64,000 nucleotides of DNA from Ignavibacteriaceae bacterium (GCA_031292455.1 JARLHC010000075.1:1-64000); one strand, 5' to 3'; shown: positions 24,984-30,729, numbered from the stretch's first letter. Notes: a model not told the origin generated them from the letters alone. Program-made: numbers and translations.

Positions 24984-25012
24984 CCATATTTATTTTAATA
25001 GAGTTACCTAAA

Positions 25013-25048
25013 GAAAAAGGCTGCCTCATATCCATTTTGATGCAGCCT
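25013..25048 (-). terminator. Terminator of the cytochrome operon
   Basis: A perfect 7-bp stem AGGCTGC / GCAGCCT with a 17-base loop. Read on the minus strand, the 3' arm is followed by TTTTTCTTT, 26 bases beyond the stop of the last cytochrome gene. It may also serve the methyltransferase gene on the plus strand. Confidence 0.8.
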
Positions 25049-25073
25049 CTCTCTCAATAAATCTGATATTAAA

Positions 25074-25988
25074 TCACTTCCTCTTGTTTAGCGCGTAGTT
25101 GATTTGTCCGTTTATATGTCTTGTCTTATCTATTATCTCACCCTTCTCGTTTACTACCGTCGAATGGCACGCTACACATTCAGTTATTGGCAGTTTAATA
25201 TGCCCAACTGGGGAAATAAATCCGTCTGGTGTACCATGGCATGAGCCGCAGGGAGCTTGGGATCCGTCTAATTTTGTCCACGTTACTGTTTTAGCATTTC
25301 CTGTCATTTTGTCGGATGTATAAGCGAATTTTCTTTCTGTCGGGGCATCGGATTTCTTGAATTCAAAGTTGCCATGACAGTATGTGTTCGCACAGGTTCC
25401 TGTGCTCGTATCAAATGAAGCATCAGTTGCTATTCCATGAATTGCAAGACTGTCCAGCTTTACTATATTTGGTTGCGGCCCATGACTAAAATGATCCGCG
25501 GCATTACTTGCTGTTGGAATTTTATGACAGTTTTCGCATGCTACAATACCAAAACCATTATTATATAAATGACTGTCATGTGCACCAACTGTAATTAAAC
25601 TTGTTGAAGTATTTCCGCTTGCATCTCTCGGTGGAGCTGTCCTCGTAGGATCATGAAAATCGCCATGACATGTATTGCATGCCAGTGGACCCGCTCCTTC
25701 TGTATGACAATTATAACATGATACCCCTGTTATCCCTCCCTTGAAATCAGCAGCATGGCATTTCTGACAACTTGCAAAATCAAAATTATTAACTGCTAAG
25801 AACTTGCCGTGAAAGTTAGCTGATGTAGTATCATTGAATCCTGTTTTGTGAATTGAGAGTGCTTGCGGCTGTGTTATATTCTCCTTTAACTTGCTGCACC
25901 CGTCAGTTAAAATTGCAATGCTGATTATTGTAATAAAACTTAAAATATAATATTTCATTTTTAATTCCATAATCTTATTTAGCTCCAT
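25074..25988 (-). CDS. Heptaheme c-type cytochrome lipoprotein
   Basis: A protein of 304 residues. A lipoprotein signal ends in LTDGC (Cys31). Met11 (25958) or Met7 (25970) could be the real start, as the hydrophobic signal begins there. Six CXXCH motifs (CQKCH, CYNCH, CNTCH, CENCH, CGSCH, CVACH) and one CX4CH motif (CANTYCH) give seven haem sites. The CX4CH site followed by CXXCH resembles the Geobacter-type CxxxxCH...CxxCH domain. It probably sits on the outer membrane as the exit cytochrome of the conduit. It is the last gene of the operon and overlaps the 14-haem gene by 14 bases from the ATG at 25988. Confidence 0.9.
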   Translation of the reverse strand: MELNKIMELKMKYYILSFITIISIAILTDGCSKLKENITQPQALSIHKTGFNDTTSANFHGKFLAVNNFDFASCQKCHAADFKGGITGVSCYNCHTEGAGPLACNTCHGDFHDPTRTAPPRDASGNTSTSLITVGAHDSHLYNNGFGIVACENCHKIPTASNAADHFSHGPQPNIVKLDSLAIHGIATDASFDTSTGTCANTYCHGNFEFKKSDAPTERKFAYTSDKMTGNAKTVTWTKLDGSQAPCGSCHGTPDGFISPVGHIKLPITECVACHSTVVNEKGEIIDKTRHINGQINYALNKRK

Positions 25989-27201
25989 GACAATATCCGC
26001 AGAATCTTACTCCTGGTGTTGCCGGAAAACGGGTATGGCAGTTAAAACATACAGATGCATCGCTGTCATGCCAGTCGCCATGTACATTATGCATAAATCC
26101 GCTTGGATGGGTTCTGGGGTCTGTCCCTTTTATTCCGTCTGCATCAGTATGGCATGTTACACATATAGGGTCGGCTCCTTGTACATCGTGACATGCCTGG
26201 CAACTCTCAATGTCCCTTCTTGCTAATACACTATGCCTTCCGCCTCCTGTCCCGACACCTCTTCCTGTAACAAAATCAGTTGCAAAATGAGAGGTTGGTG
26301 TGATCCCTCCTAAATTGAAATCACTGTTTTTCGATGAATGGCAGCTTCCGCAGAATGTCTCTGTTTCATGACAGGTCTGGCACTCTGCTGTCTTACCTTT
26401 TAAATCAATTCCATGCGTATACGTGTAATTCAAATCGTGTACCCGCGTTATCTGCTGTTGCTTTGTACCATCTTTAAAATTGTTTGGTAAATAAGGTGCA
26501 TAAAAATCAGTGGGCGTGTTTGCGCCCGTAATTACATTATTGGCAGCATGGCAGGTAATGCATGAATTATTGTTGGCATCATGGCACATAACACAGTTGG
26601 CATTAATTTCCTTTGCCGCATATTTATGGCTCTTAATAAAGTTAACACTCTGGTGCGATAATGGCTTTAAGTTAACCGTGGAAATATGGCAGGCCTCGCA
26701 TGAACTTGTCGCTTTGCCTTTGTCATTGTGGCATGAATAGCAGTTTTCCATAATAGGGTAGGGCTGCACTGCTTTGTAAGCATAATCCACATCTGTTATC
26801 CCCTTATGGCAGGCTTCGCATTTTAGCTTCTGATTATCAAGATGTGCGCTGTGATCAAATATAATATTATTCGATGTATGCTGAATTAGATTTGCATACA
26901 TTTCACCGTAATGGCACTTGTTGCATTTATCATCATTATTCACTTCATCATGGCATTGCTTGCATGCTTCATGATTTGGCATTAACCTGTCTTTTACCGA
27001 CTTGCTTGTCTTCACTGCTGCATGGCATACATCGCATTCAGCTAAATCTTTATGAAAACTGTGCGAGAACTTGATTATGTTCGCGTTTCCTGTCGAGTCA
27101 GAATCATCAGTTGCCTTCGGGGATGAAAAAGCAGATAATAACAGTATAACTAAAATTACAGGAAGTACAATTAGGTATAGATATTTAATTTTTAATTTCA
27201 T
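25975..27201 (-). CDS. 14-haem c-type cytochrome
   Basis: A protein of 408 residues. An N-terminal hydrophobic segment (about 8-27) acts as signal peptide or anchor. There are 14 CXXCH motifs (CDVCH, CKQCH, CNKCH, CEACH, CYSCH, CEACH, CVMCH, CITCH, CQTCH, CGSCH, CQACH, CVTCH, CFNCH, CGYCH). Many extra histidines could give bis-His ligation. The haem density, one per 29 residues, is that of a molecular wire. It is probably periplasmic, passing electrons to the porin-embedded exit cytochrome. It lies one base after the porin gene and overlaps the heptaheme gene, so all three should be made together. Confidence 0.93.
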   Translation of the reverse strand: MKLKIKYLYLIVLPVILVILLLSAFSSPKATDDSDSTGNANIIKFSHSFHKDLAECDVCHAAVKTSKSVKDRLMPNHEACKQCHDEVNNDDKCNKCHYGEMYANLIQHTSNNIIFDHSAHLDNQKLKCEACHKGITDVDYAYKAVQPYPIMENCYSCHNDKGKATSSCEACHISTVNLKPLSHQSVNFIKSHKYAAKEINANCVMCHDANNNSCITCHAANNVITGANTPTDFYAPYLPNNFKDGTKQQQITRVHDLNYTYTHGIDLKGKTAECQTCHETETFCGSCHSSKNSDFNLGGITPTSHFATDFVTGRGVGTGGGRHSVLARRDIESCQACHDVQGADPICVTCHTDADGIKGTDPRTHPSGFMHNVHGDWHDSDASVCFNCHTRFPATPGVRFCGYCHGAK

Positions 27202-27202
27202 G

Positions 27203-28489
27203 TTACATCATCCCCAGATTAGTATTAAACCAGTAGTTGATCTTGAAGAAAAACCTGAAGTCATTCTTGTATATTTTATTGTCCATATATTGTCCCTGAA
27301 GATCAAATGATAAGGCCCTGTATGGTCTTACATTTACTCCTGCCAGAACTGAGGCAAGGTCATTTACTGCATCATCTGGCGAAAGTTTATATGCCGTAAA
27401 TGAAATCCCTGCAGATGGAGTTAGTATCCCATCCCAAAATGAATGAGCTGTATATAATGATAATCCATCCATTTCTCCGGCATAGCCTAAATTTTTAAGA
27501 TATGTTAATGTTCCGTAAGTAGTGCTCACCCCTAAAGTAATCCTCTGCGAATTATCATCCTGGTAAATTACATCCCCTACTTTACCTGTCAGAGTAATTT
27601 CCTTGTTTAAAGTATAATCCCCTCCGACTTCTATTTCCTGTGTATTACCATAATTAAATACTGAAAATATTGAATTATAATTTATCCTCGGGTCCCTGTA
27701 ATTATAGTATACATTAAGTTTTAAATTATCTATCTGCAGATAGTCTGCATTAAATTCAAACTTTGACGTCTTTTCAAAATTAAAATCATAATCGTATCTG
27801 GCTTCTATGGCTGCTGTATTCTTAAGATCATAGAATACTTCTGCTGATCCAAAACTGAATTGATTGGAATTATGAGTTATCAGTACATTGATTGGATTAT
27901 TCTCCGGATCTAATCGAAGTGCGTAGTAATCTTCAGGTTTAAAATTCTTATTCACATAGCTTAAGCTTACCTGGAAATTATCAATTGCATTGGTTATTAA
28001 TTTCCCCCCTGTAACGTAATTATTCTTCCAGTCATTAAAGGCAACTTTCTGGTATGATGGAACATCTCCGCCGTAATAACCCGATATCCTGAAACGATTA
28101 AATTTTAGATCAACGTTGGCTCCATCATAAACTCCCCCTTCTATGCTGTTGAAAATTGGTTGCCTTCCTAATTTTATGGTTGCAACATCAAAAAGGTCAC
28201 GCCCTTCAAGGTATAGGTTATATAACCGTACGCGGGATGCTTCGTTTGCATCTCCCGCCGAAAGATCTCCTTCAAAGTCAAGATAAGTTCTTAGCGAGAA
28301 CTTATCTTGATTGATATTAAGGCTTAATAGCTCATATGCCCGCAAATATTGATTTGAAGCATTTACTGTATCAAACCTTTCCATTGAATAAACCGAGGAA
28401 GAGATTCTTCCATTTATGTTTTGTGGGATTAAGTATCCCGTAAACATTATTATAAGGCAGATTAGTAGTATAAATTTATTCATGTTCAA
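27203..28489 (-). CDS. Outer-membrane beta-barrel porin of cytochrome conduit
   Basis: A protein of 428 residues. A signal peptide spans about residues 1-22 (ending LIPQ). The rest alternates polar and aromatic residues with about 18-20 possible strands (FSLRTYLDFEGDL, NVYYNYRDP, GTLTYLKNLGYAG). It ends in the aromatic strand FFFKINYWFNTNLGMM. There is no haem motif. Set directly between four multiheme cytochromes, it fits the role of the barrel in porin-cytochrome complexes such as MtrB or OmbB, though the length is smaller than MtrB and the sequence is not obviously related. Direct similarity needs a profile search. Confidence 0.8.
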   Translation of the reverse strand: MNMNKFILLICLIIMFTGYLIPQNINGRISSSVYSMERFDTVNASNQYLRAYELLSLNINQDKFSLRTYLDFEGDLSAGDANEASRVRLYNLYLEGRDLFDVATIKLGRQPIFNSIEGGVYDGANVDLKFNRFRISGYYGGDVPSYQKVAFNDWKNNYVTGGKLITNAIDNFQVSLSYVNKNFKPEDYYALRLDPENNPINVLITHNSNQFSFGSAEVFYDLKNTAAIEARYDYDFNFEKTSKFEFNADYLQIDNLKLNVYYNYRDPRINYNSIFSVFNYGNTQEIEVGGDYTLNKEITLTGKVGDVIYQDDNSQRITLGVSTTYGTLTYLKNLGYAGEMDGLSLYTAHSFWDGILTPSAGISFTAYKLSPDDAVNDLASVLAGVNVRPYRALSFDLQGQYMDNKIYKNDFRFFFKINYWFNTNLGMM

Positions 28490-28512
28490 TATTTTTTTGA
28501 AAGATTAAACTG

Positions 28513-29067
28513 TTATTTGCTCTTGGGTATCGGATGCTTAATCTTATCCCACATTACGGCAAAGTCTTGTTTTACATATGTCGGACTCTTTTCATTATGG
28601 CATTGTACACAAAATGATTCACGATCCGTGTGTATCATTAATCCGTTCTTTATTGCCTCTTCTTTATTCTTCATTATGCTTACCGATTTGTAGTTTGAAC
28701 CTGCGCCATGGCAGGTCTCGCACTGTACACCATCTTCTACATGAAACTTTGCGCCTAATAATGTCGGGTCCGCCTTATATCCGGATGTGTGGCACCCCAT
28801 GCATTCATCGGTTTTAATAGCCGGTGTCTTGTATCCTCTGGCCAGCGCAATTGAATCTGCCCTCGGTGTCAGGAGTGCTTTGTATGCCTGTGAATGCTTT
28901 GTCGATTTCCATATATCATATTGCTTGCCTGCTTTTTCTGTCTTATGACAAAGTCCGCATGTCTCTGCACCTACAAATGTATTTGGCTTCTTGTCTGTAT
29001 CTTTATCTTGACAAAAGAATAGGGGAGAAAACATTATCAGCATTATAATCGCAGTTCTATGAGTCAT
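28513..29067 (-). CDS. Tetraheme cytochrome c (c554-like)
   Basis: A protein of 184 residues. The N-terminal hydrophobic segment (MTHRTAIIMLIMFSPLFFCQ) is a signal peptide, possibly of the lipoprotein type with the Cys at residue 19. Four CXXCH motifs are present (CGLCH, CMGCH, CETCH, CVQCH), with the pattern ETCGLCH...W..TKHSQAY and DGVQCETCHGAG seen in cytochrome c554-like electron carriers. It is probably a small periplasmic or membrane-attached shuttle. It lies between the T9SS cytochrome and the porin gene in the operon. Confidence 0.9.
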   Translation of the reverse strand: MTHRTAIIMLIMFSPLFFCQDKDTDKKPNTFVGAETCGLCHKTEKAGKQYDIWKSTKHSQAYKALLTPRADSIALARGYKTPAIKTDECMGCHTSGYKADPTLLGAKFHVEDGVQCETCHGAGSNYKSVSIMKNKEEAIKNGLMIHTDRESFCVQCHNEKSPTYVKQDFAVMWDKIKHPIPKSK

Positions 29068-29133
29068 TATACCTCCTGTATTTTAATTTTTATAATTGGA
29101 GAGTTCAACTTAATGAACTCTCCCGATATAGCT

Positions 29134-30729
29134 TTATTTTATTAAGACCATCTTTCTAACCATCTGGAAGTCCTTCGAAACAAGACGGTAGAAATATATC
29201 CCGGATGCGTATGAGCTGGCGTTCCATTCAATCTTGTATTTGCCTGCCTGATAGAAATTATTTGTTAGAGTTACGACTTCTTTCCCTATAGCATCGTATA
29301 CCACTACCTTTACATTGCCTGATTCAGGAATTGAAAACTTAATTGTGGTCGAGGGATTGAAAGGATTCGGATAATTCTGAGATAATTCATATTTGTTTGG
29401 TGCCATGCCTGTTTCATTCAATAGTGCCGTCGGAGTGAATCTGGCTATCGCATCCCTTAATAATTTTTGTACAAGTCGGGTATTATGAATACCATGGCTC
29501 CCTTCTCCTGTAATCGATAGCAAATTATAATTCGCCTGCATGAATGCAGTCGTAAGTGAATCATTATGGCTGGCTTTATTTATCTTAGTCTGTAAAACAT
29601 TTATAAGACTGTCTGTTCTTGTCTGCGTGCCTCTGTAATCAAACATTTTGTCATGGTTCGAGGTATCAACTACTGTATAGAAATCTGAATGACAGTTCCT
29701 GCATGCCTCTACCCTTGGGAAAAATGTATGCCCTGTTGCTGATGTCTGTCCGTTGAATGGACTTGCATATACATGGCAGTTCACGCATCTCTCCGTTGCT
29801 GCGTATGTATGCGCAGAGTTAATGTATGTTTCGCCGGGATACTGATAACCGAATAAAGGACTTCCTGTCAATGCCTTTGATGTTGTCTGATGCGGCGTGC
29901 TGTTTATAATAATTGTGTCTGCATTATTATGGCACTGATCGCATATTGTACTTTGCGGCGTAATTGCAAACCTTAACTGGTGCTGGTTATTCTTTGCATG
30001 TGGATCATGACACGCTACACAGGTTAATGGCTTTACATCGGAACCGGTAGCTAGTATTGTATCCCTGTATCCCTGTGGATTGGATGCCCATAAAATAAAA
30101 TTCTGTGCAACATGACATCTTACGCACGATTTATTCGTTACTACAAATGAAATATTGCTGTGTGCATGTACCGATTGCTGCCATTCATCATAATATGGAT
30201 TATGTACCCCTTGATGGCATTGCCCGCAAAGCTCAGCTGAATAGTTCAGTTTATTAATATTCTTAAAATCCCAATGGTTTGCTCCTAATATTACAGTATC
30301 TCCCGGATTGGTAGGATTTGTATTTTTGATTCCTAAAGGACCATGACATGCCTCGCATCCTACATTCTTTACCCTGTTAAATGCGGCAATATTAGTAATG
30401 ACATAGTTTGGAGTTTTAGTACTGTCTTTCAAAACATATTCATCTGCGCCGTAAGTTGCCGGTCCTGGTATCCATCCGGTTGTATGACACGAAAGACAAT
30501 CATAACTTAACATTGTCTTCAGTGAATCATAAGAAACTGCATGCAGTGTATTCTTATATGTGTCATATTTTGGAGAACCTATGTTCCCTGATTGATGACA
30601 GGATGCGCATGACCTTCCTTGTGGCTCACTTCCGTTTCCCGTTCCTAAATAATAATTTGTTTCTTGGCTGAATAATATCCCCGATGCCGTGAGGAGAAAA
30701 ATTGCTGTAAGTAGTAAGTTTCTATTCAT
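29134..30729 (-). CDS. Nonaheme c-type cytochrome with T9SS sorting domain
   Basis: A protein of 531 residues. A signal peptide (1-21, ending LFSQ) is followed by nine CXXCH motifs from about residue 40 to 345 (CASCH, CLSCH, CEACH, CGQCH, CVRCH, CVACH, CDQCH, CVNCH, CRNCH). A helical region without cysteines comes next. The last 75 residues or so are a type IX sorting domain with LSQNYPNPFNPSTTIKFSIP and the end FQMVRKMVLIK. So haem should be attached in the periplasm and the protein then moved through the T9SS to the cell surface. It is the first gene of the cytochrome operon and its likely role is outer electron exchange. Confidence 0.92.
   Translation of the reverse strand: MNRNLLLTAIFLLTASGILFSQETNYYLGTGNGSEPQGRSCASCHQSGNIGSPKYDTYKNTLHAVSYDSLKTMLSYDCLSCHTTGWIPGPATYGADEYVLKDSTKTPNYVITNIAAFNRVKNVGCEACHGPLGIKNTNPTNPGDTVILGANHWDFKNINKLNYSAELCGQCHQGVHNPYYDEWQQSVHAHSNISFVVTNKSCVRCHVAQNFILWASNPQGYRDTILATGSDVKPLTCVACHDPHAKNNQHQLRFAITPQSTICDQCHNNADTIIINSTPHQTTSKALTGSPLFGYQYPGETYINSAHTYAATERCVNCHVYASPFNGQTSATGHTFFPRVEACRNCHSDFYTVVDTSNHDKMFDYRGTQTRTDSLINVLQTKINKASHNDSLTTAFMQANYNLLSITGEGSHGIHNTRLVQKLLRDAIARFTPTALLNETGMAPNKYELSQNYPNPFNPSTTIKFSIPESGNVKVVVYDAIGKEVVTLTNNFYQAGKYKIEWNASSYASGIYFYRLVSKDFQMVRKMVLIK

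What the first reader, a model, noticed from the sequence alone, without database searches (positions are those of the whole stretch)
25074..30729. Five-gene porin-cytochrome operon with 34 haem sites and a surface-sorted cytochrome
Seen: five minus-strand genes with spacings of -14 to 66 bases code for 9-, 4-, 14- and 7-haem c-type cytochromes and a barrel protein, and a terminator follows the last one. Known: porin-cytochrome conduits (Mtr, Pcc) carry electrons across the outer membrane. Inference: this is a conduit in which the outer cytochrome uses the Bacteroidota type IX route. The order and haem numbers do not match MtrCAB or the Geobacter OmaB-OmbB-OmcB set that I know.
Basis: partly seen in the sequence, partly recalled or inferred. 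Interest (0 to 1): 0.85.

Follow-up and report, generated by a model that had tools for sequence, protein, structure and literature searches.

The report
Ignavibacteria electron conduit with T9SS-exported cytochrome
Five adjacent genes in an Ignavibacteria genome appear to build a wire of 34 haem sites that carries respiratory electrons through the outer membrane; the core was described in 2014, but the added outer cytochrome seems to be exported by the Bacteroidota type IX secretion system and resembles a mineral-reducing surface protein known from a Gram-positive bacterium.

Summary
In detail: five minus-strand genes at 25074-30729 with 9, 4, 0, 14 and 7 (6 CX2CH + 1 CX4CH) haem motifs, short gaps and a strong terminator. 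Four of them (tetrahaem, barrel, 14-haem, heptahaem lipoprotein) are the class-wide Ignavibacteria porin-cytochrome (Pcc) cluster, described in 2014 for Ignavibacterium album (IALB_1837-1840, 400-aa 14-haem protein included), so "matches no known set" is wrong. It is not MtrCAB. The fifth gene is the new part: its nine-haem protein is closest, among solved structures, to OcwA, the surface Fe(III)/electrode reductase of Thermincola potens, and ends in a type A T9SS sorting domain. All 30 family members fetched with a tail-free profile carry that domain; 332 homologues of the other three cytochromes carry none. Genomes with the barrel nearly always have such a nonahaem (51 of 57, against 2 of 338 without). 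The genome has SprA, PorU and PorV, and CbcL-like and NapC/ImcH-like quinol oxidases that relatives place beside the conduit. Best reading: an outward electron conduit whose terminal reductase is exported by T9SS. No report of T9SS-exported multihaem cytochromes was found in the open-access library. Function is inferred; nothing was tested at the bench.

The parts
29134..30729 (-). Nonahaem cytochrome (531 aa), OcwA-like, residues 453-528 a type A T9SS sorting domain
   Evidence: 9 CX2CH; PF13435 c554 domain at 40-130, PF18962/TIGR04183 tail; profile match to OcwA 6i5b E 1.8e-34
29146..29373 (-). T9SS C-terminal sorting domain coding part of the nonahaem gene
   Evidence: TIGR04183 48.8 bits in the genome search
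28513..29067 (-). Tetrahaem cytochrome of the c554 family (184 aa), predicted periplasmic carrier
   Evidence: 4 CX2CH; PF13435 E 2.6e-18; cytochrome c554 1bvb E 2.8e-8; lipobox in only 4 of 103 homologues
27203..28489 (-). Outer-membrane beta barrel without plug (428 aa from TTG, 426 aa from ATG 28483); family seen only in Ignavibacteria among the phylum genomes searched
   Evidence: AlphaFold2 pLDDT 81.6, 24 strand elements; BtuB-type 22-strand barrels Z about 19, rmsd 4.2 over 335 residues; no Pfam, NCBIfam or PDB sequence match; distribution
25975..27201 (-). 14-haem wire cytochrome (408 aa) predicted to thread the barrel
   Evidence: 14 CX2CH; 14 in 107 of 115 homologues; profile match to c7-type multihaem 3ov0 E 2.8e-25
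25074..25988 (-). Heptahaem lipoprotein cytochrome (304 aa, 6 CX2CH + 1 CX4CH), predicted outer-membrane cytochrome
   Evidence: TIGR01904 E 3.2e-11; lipobox in 90 of 107 homologues with a C-S-[D/E/K]-[L/I] start
25010..25055 (-). Intrinsic terminator after the last gene
   Evidence: fold z-score -4.3

Best explanation
This operon encodes an outward extracellular electron transfer conduit of the Ignavibacteria Pcc kind. Inferred path: quinol is oxidised at the inner membrane by CbcL-like and NapC/ImcH-like enzymes coded elsewhere in this genome; the periplasmic tetrahaem passes electrons to the 14-haem wire, which sits in the plugless barrel and crosses the outer membrane; the heptahaem lipoprotein receives them at the membrane surface; and the OcwA-like nonahaem, made holo in the periplasm, exported folded through the T9SS translocon SprA and trimmed and anchored by PorU, acts as the terminal reductase for Fe(III) minerals, humics, electrodes or small soluble acceptors. 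Shown here: gene content, haem motifs, sorting domain, barrel fold (predicted), conservation, co-occurrence, T9SS and quinol-oxidase genes in the genome. Inferred: assembly of the complex, the wire lying inside the barrel, surface location, direction of flow and acceptor.
For: Core order tetrahaem-barrel-14-haem-heptahaem kept across the order and, at about 230-345 bits for the barrel, across other families of the class. Known precedent in I. album. Relatives put CbcL-like 16-haem + cytochrome b561 proteins, or Rieske/cytochrome b with NapC-like 6-7-haem proteins, directly before the conduit; this genome holds a CbcL-like 715-aa and a NapC-like 499-aa protein side by side on another contig. 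Nonahaem: OcwA match with nine haems, c554-like front and NrfA-like rear, the architecture described for OcwA (PMC6703420). T9SS domain in 30 of 30 full-length relatives found with a profile lacking the tail, 0 of 332 homologues of the other cytochromes. SprA, PorU, PorV and about 112 sorting domains in the genome. Co-occurrence of nonahaem and barrel: 51 of 57 against 2 of 338; within the order, 35 of 37 against 0 of 3. Fe(III)-respiring Melioribacteraceae isolates are reported (PMC11708057).
Against: The 14-haem model is poor (pLDDT 48.6), so nothing shows it fits the barrel. Its N-terminal hydrophobic helix has no clear cleavage site and might be an inner-membrane anchor. The nonahaem is next to the conduit in only about 16 distinct loci; elsewhere it lies apart, so the operon link is a habit of some lineages. 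Co-occurrence counts are not corrected for shared ancestry, and only up to four candidates were scored per genome. No expression or biochemical data were found for this cluster.
Confidence: 0.74

Rival explanations
1. The nonahaem is an extracellular respiratory enzyme for a soluble substrate (nitrite, hydroxylamine, sulfite or tetrathionate), fed by the conduit, not a mineral reductase.
For: Its profile also hits octahaem nitrite reductases, NrfA and MccA (E 1e-17 to 2e-7), and OcwA itself reduces oxyanions.
Against: No CX2CK active-site motif; the best matches by far are OcwA and another multihaem cytochrome, 6qvm; of the distal His-His pairs of OcwA only one His of the second site is invariant and the first site is variable.
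Confidence: 0.2
2. The conduit runs inward: it takes electrons from Fe(II), solids or partner cells.
For: Porin-cytochrome conduits can run both ways, and the sequence does not fix direction (established knowledge).
Against: Neighbouring CbcL-like, ImcH-like and bc-type modules in relatives are quinol oxidases in Geobacter-type chains; cultured relatives are reported as Fe(III) reducers.
Confidence: 0.12
3. The sorting domain does not deliver a holo-cytochrome to this conduit; the nonahaem is a surface protein with a separate role.
For: The nonahaem is often coded away from the conduit.
Against: Nine haem motifs and their order are kept in nearly all members while the tail is always present; strong co-occurrence with the barrel.
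Confidence: 0.12

Closest known systems
Pcc cluster of Ignavibacterium album JCM 16511 (IALB_1837-1840; Shi et al. 2014, PMC4245776)
   Same: Porin, 14-haem ~400-aa periplasmic cytochrome, outer cytochrome with an atypical motif, extra periplasmic cytochrome
   Different: No T9SS nonahaem is mentioned in the text read; the IALB sequences themselves were not compared here, only their relatives
OmaB-OmbB-OmcB of Geobacter sulfurreducens
   Same: Small barrel plus periplasmic multihaem plus outer lipoprotein cytochrome; CxxxxCH/CxxCH domain of the heptahaem
   Different: 14 haems instead of 8 in the wire, 7 instead of 12 in the lipoprotein, added tetrahaem and T9SS nonahaem
MtrCAB of Shewanella
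   Same: Works on the same principle
   Different: Barrel has no MtrB/PioB match, wire no MtrA/DmsE match, outer cytochromes no OmcA/MtrC family match over cut-off
OcwA of Thermincola potens (PDB 6i5b); second PDB match 6qvm, a multihaem cytochrome (probably OmhA of Carboxydothermus, from memory)
   Same: Nine haems (OcwA), c554-like plus NrfA-like halves, C-terminal region with the GSxGxHN stretch
   Different: Surface protein of a Gram-positive; here a T9SS tail in a diderm
c7-type multihaem chain PDB 3ov0 (Geobacter dodecahaem nanowire, identity from memory)
   Same: Best solved relative of the 14-haem wire
   Different: A free periplasmic protein, not part of a barrel complex

Membership tests
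Porin-cytochrome (Pcc) cluster | Barrel gene next to a periplasmic multihaem cytochrome gene | tested here: met
   kept in relatives
Porin-cytochrome (Pcc) cluster | Outer-membrane cytochrome in the cluster | tested here: met
   Predicted from sorting signals: lipobox in 90 of 107 homologues of the heptahaem; T9SS tail on the nonahaem
Porin-cytochrome (Pcc) cluster | Sequence homology to Geobacter OmbB/OmaB | not tested
   Geobacter sequences were not at hand; papers report OmbB-like porins in Ignavibacteria (PMC7399161; PMC6137239)
[quoted passage not shown]
   needs reconstitution
Ignavibacterium-type Pcc | 14-haem, about 400-aa wire beside the porin | tested here: met
   14 motifs, 408 aa; 14 in 107 of 115 homologues
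MtrCAB | MtrB/PioB barrel family | tested here: not met
   no Pfam or NCBIfam match of that kind at E 0.1
MtrCAB | MtrA/DmsE decahaem family in the wire | tested here: not met
   TIGR03508 not matched by the 14-haem protein; 6r2q chain A absent from its profile hits
MtrCAB | OmcA/MtrC family outer cytochrome | tested here: not met
   TIGR03507 matched only by the 14-haem protein, at 12.6 bits against a 209 cut-off
OcwA-like nonahaem surface reductase | Nine haems, c554-like then NrfA-like halves | tested here: met
   architecture from PMC6703420
OcwA-like nonahaem surface reductase | Penta-coordinate haems 2 and 5 with distal His-His pairs | tested here: inconclusive
   one His of the second pair invariant (H280), the first site variable
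OcwA-like nonahaem surface reductase | Cell-surface location and Fe(III)/electrode activity | not testable with these tools
   bench work needed
T9SS type A cargo | C-terminal sorting domain over cut-off | tested here: met
   TIGR04183 44.9 bits, cut-off 23
T9SS type A cargo | T9SS machinery in the same genome | tested here: met
   SprA, PorU-type C25 peptidase beside PorV
NrfA nitrite reductase | CX2CK catalytic haem motif, five haems | tested here: not met
   nine CX2CH, no CX2C with another residue after it

The most novel reading that the evidence does not exclude
Ignavibacteria as a class export OcwA-type nonahaem terminal reductases, fully haem-loaded and folded, through the type IX secretion system, as the outer end of a Pcc conduit: a further route to the surface for metal-reducing cytochromes, beside type II secretion/lipoprotein sorting and Gram-positive wall anchoring.
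Probability: 0.6. Interest if true: 0.72.

Novelty: new variant of a known kind. Interest (0 to 1): 0.58.

Why it matters
The conduit of Ignavibacteria has been on record since 2014, but the papers read here name no terminal reductase or surface-sorting route for it. A class-wide nonahaem with a T9SS tail that travels with the barrel gives a concrete candidate for both, links the OcwA reductases known from Gram-positives to diderm bacteria, and asks whether T9SS can carry a protein with nine covalently bound haems. It can be tested in cultured Melioribacter or Stygiobacter by fractionation and haem staining.

Tried and rejected
The 14-haem structure prediction was too poor to use (pLDDT 48.6), so no fold search was run with it. 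Foldseek and VIA matches of the barrel are generic large barrels (siderophore receptors, BtuB, ushers, Occ channels); they support size and fold only, and the absence of MtrB from the list says nothing. MtrCAB membership was rejected on family models. Plain nutrient porin rejected: no family match. NrfA/octahaem nitrite reductase identity rejected for lack of CX2CK and a much better OcwA match. The promoter scan is near chance level (30 against 24.7 expected), so no promoter is claimed. Paper searches combining T9SS or sorting-domain terms with cytochrome or EET terms gave no title or abstract reporting T9SS multihaem cytochromes; the library is open-access only, so this is not proof of novelty. 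The M. roseus multi-omics paper does not mention porins or multihaem EET.

Full report
What is there. Five minus-strand genes lie at 25074-30729. In order of transcription they are a 531-aa protein with 9 CX2CH motifs, a 184-aa protein with 4, a 428-aa protein with none, a 408-aa protein with 14, and a 304-aa protein with 6 CX2CH and 1 CX4CH, 34 motifs in all. All other frames of at least 60 aa in the window hold one CX2CH between them. Gaps run from 66 to -14 bases; the barrel probably starts at ATG 28483 and the overlap of the last gene disappears with a later ATG. A hairpin with a U-run at 25010-25055 ends the unit (z -4.3).

The organism. The window is on contig 117 of a 3.36-Mb draft genome. 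Its nearest named relative by the 14-haem protein is the Ignavibacteriales MAG fen_1302 (81% identity); the 80 best loci are records labelled Ignavibacteria, Melioribacter, Bacteroidetes or Chlorobi, including Stygiobacter electus.

The core. The tetrahaem, barrel, 14-haem and heptahaem genes occur together, in that order, in nearly every relative, and in more distant form in other families of the class (barrel about 230-345 bits). The barrel is single-copy here. The 14-haem count is kept in 107 of 115 homologues and the heptahaem has a lipobox in 90 of 107. Shi et al. 2014 described this set for Ignavibacterium album: porin IALB_1839, 400-aa 14-haem IALB_1838, outer cytochrome with atypical motif IALB_1837, periplasmic IALB_1840 (PMC4245776). 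Later papers list Ignavibacteria Pcc clusters too (PMC7399161; PMC6137239). So the core is known.

Fold and relatives of the parts. AlphaFold2 gives a confident all-beta barrel (pLDDT 81.6) that superposes on 22-strand barrels such as BtuB (rmsd 4.2 over 335 residues) without a plug domain; sequence searches of Pfam, NCBIfam, PHROGs and PDB find nothing credible. The 14-haem protein is closest to a c7-type multihaem chain, PDB 3ov0, and also hits alternative complex III subunit A; its front half matches the genome's own pentahaem beside a 1025-aa protein that looks like an ACIII part. It does not match MtrA. The tetrahaem is a cytochrome c554 relative. None of the MtrCAB family models is met.

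The nonahaem. Its profile matches OcwA of Thermincola potens (6i5b) at E 1.8e-34, then 6qvm, then octahaem nitrite reductases and NrfA. OcwA is a nonahaem surface reductase made of a c554-like tetrahaem half and an NrfA-like pentahaem half with a C-terminal helix bundle (PMC6703420); the window protein has a c554 domain at 40-130 and aligns with the OcwA rear half through the GSxGxHN stretch. It has no CX2CK motif. At its C-terminus sits a T9SS type A sorting domain (44.9 bits).

Is the T9SS tail meaningful? A profile built from the haem part alone (A4) was run over 395 genomes of the phylum. All 30 loci fetched from it carry the sorting domain, and so do the 30 family members found earlier among relatives (some belong to the same genomes), whereas none of 115 wire, 103 tetrahaem and 114 lipoprotein homologues does. 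With a threshold for full-length matches (best E at most 1e-50), 51 of 57 barrel-bearing genomes have such a nonahaem, and 2 of 338 genomes without the barrel; inside the order 35 of 37 against 0 of 3. These counts ignore shared ancestry and were tallied by hand from the two tables. The genome has SprA, C25 peptidases with one beside PorV, and about 112 sorting domains. A second T9SS-tailed nonahaem (793 aa) lies on the same contig beyond the window.

Electron source. In relatives the conduit is preceded by 16-18-haem proteins fused to cytochrome b561 (CbcL-like) with a 19-haem protein, or by Rieske, cytochrome b, an 11-haem and a NapC-like 6-7-haem protein. CbcL and ImcH homologues are the proposed quinol oxidases of such chains and were reported in Ignavibacteriae (PMC6295460). 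This genome has a CbcL-like and a NapC-like gene side by side on contig 55. The CbcL and ImcH labels rest on domain make-up, not on direct comparison. This favours outward flow.

Judgement. The conduit reading is well supported by homology and precedent, about 0.85 on its own; T9SS delivery of the nonahaem about 0.65; a mineral or electrode acceptor rather than a soluble one about 0.6. What is new against the literature found is the T9SS-tailed OcwA-like family and its association with the conduit across the class. No experiment is available here.

Noticed in passing
Contig G000:C117:78665-81043 (locus L195:14664-17042, minus), beyond the window: A second nine-haem cytochrome (793 aa) with a T9SS sorting domain in the same genome.
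   Followed up: partly
L033:9711-14959, L168:8746-12931 and others: CbcL-like cytochrome b561/16-haem fusions, 19-haem proteins, or Rieske/cytochrome b/NapC-like modules sit directly before the conduit in relatives.
   Followed up: partly
window 25975-27201 and G000:C47:68162-68644: The first 160 residues of the 14-haem wire match the genome's own pentahaem (about 30% identity) beside an alternative complex III-like 1025-aa protein, which hints at a shared origin.
   Followed up: no
L028:132-1892, L119:9112 on, L113:9249 on: In some relatives the outer lipoprotein cytochrome has grown to 10-26 CX2CH motifs with up to five CX4CH.
   Followed up: no
L102:12107-14545 and L128:7841-10285: Larger T9SS-tailed cytochromes with 15 CX2CH + 1 CX4CH downstream of the conduit.
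   Followed up: no
Homologues of window 25074-25988, residues after the lipobox cysteine: A C-S-[D/E/K]-[L/I] start in most homologues, which may be a surface-lipoprotein sorting signal.
   Followed up: partly
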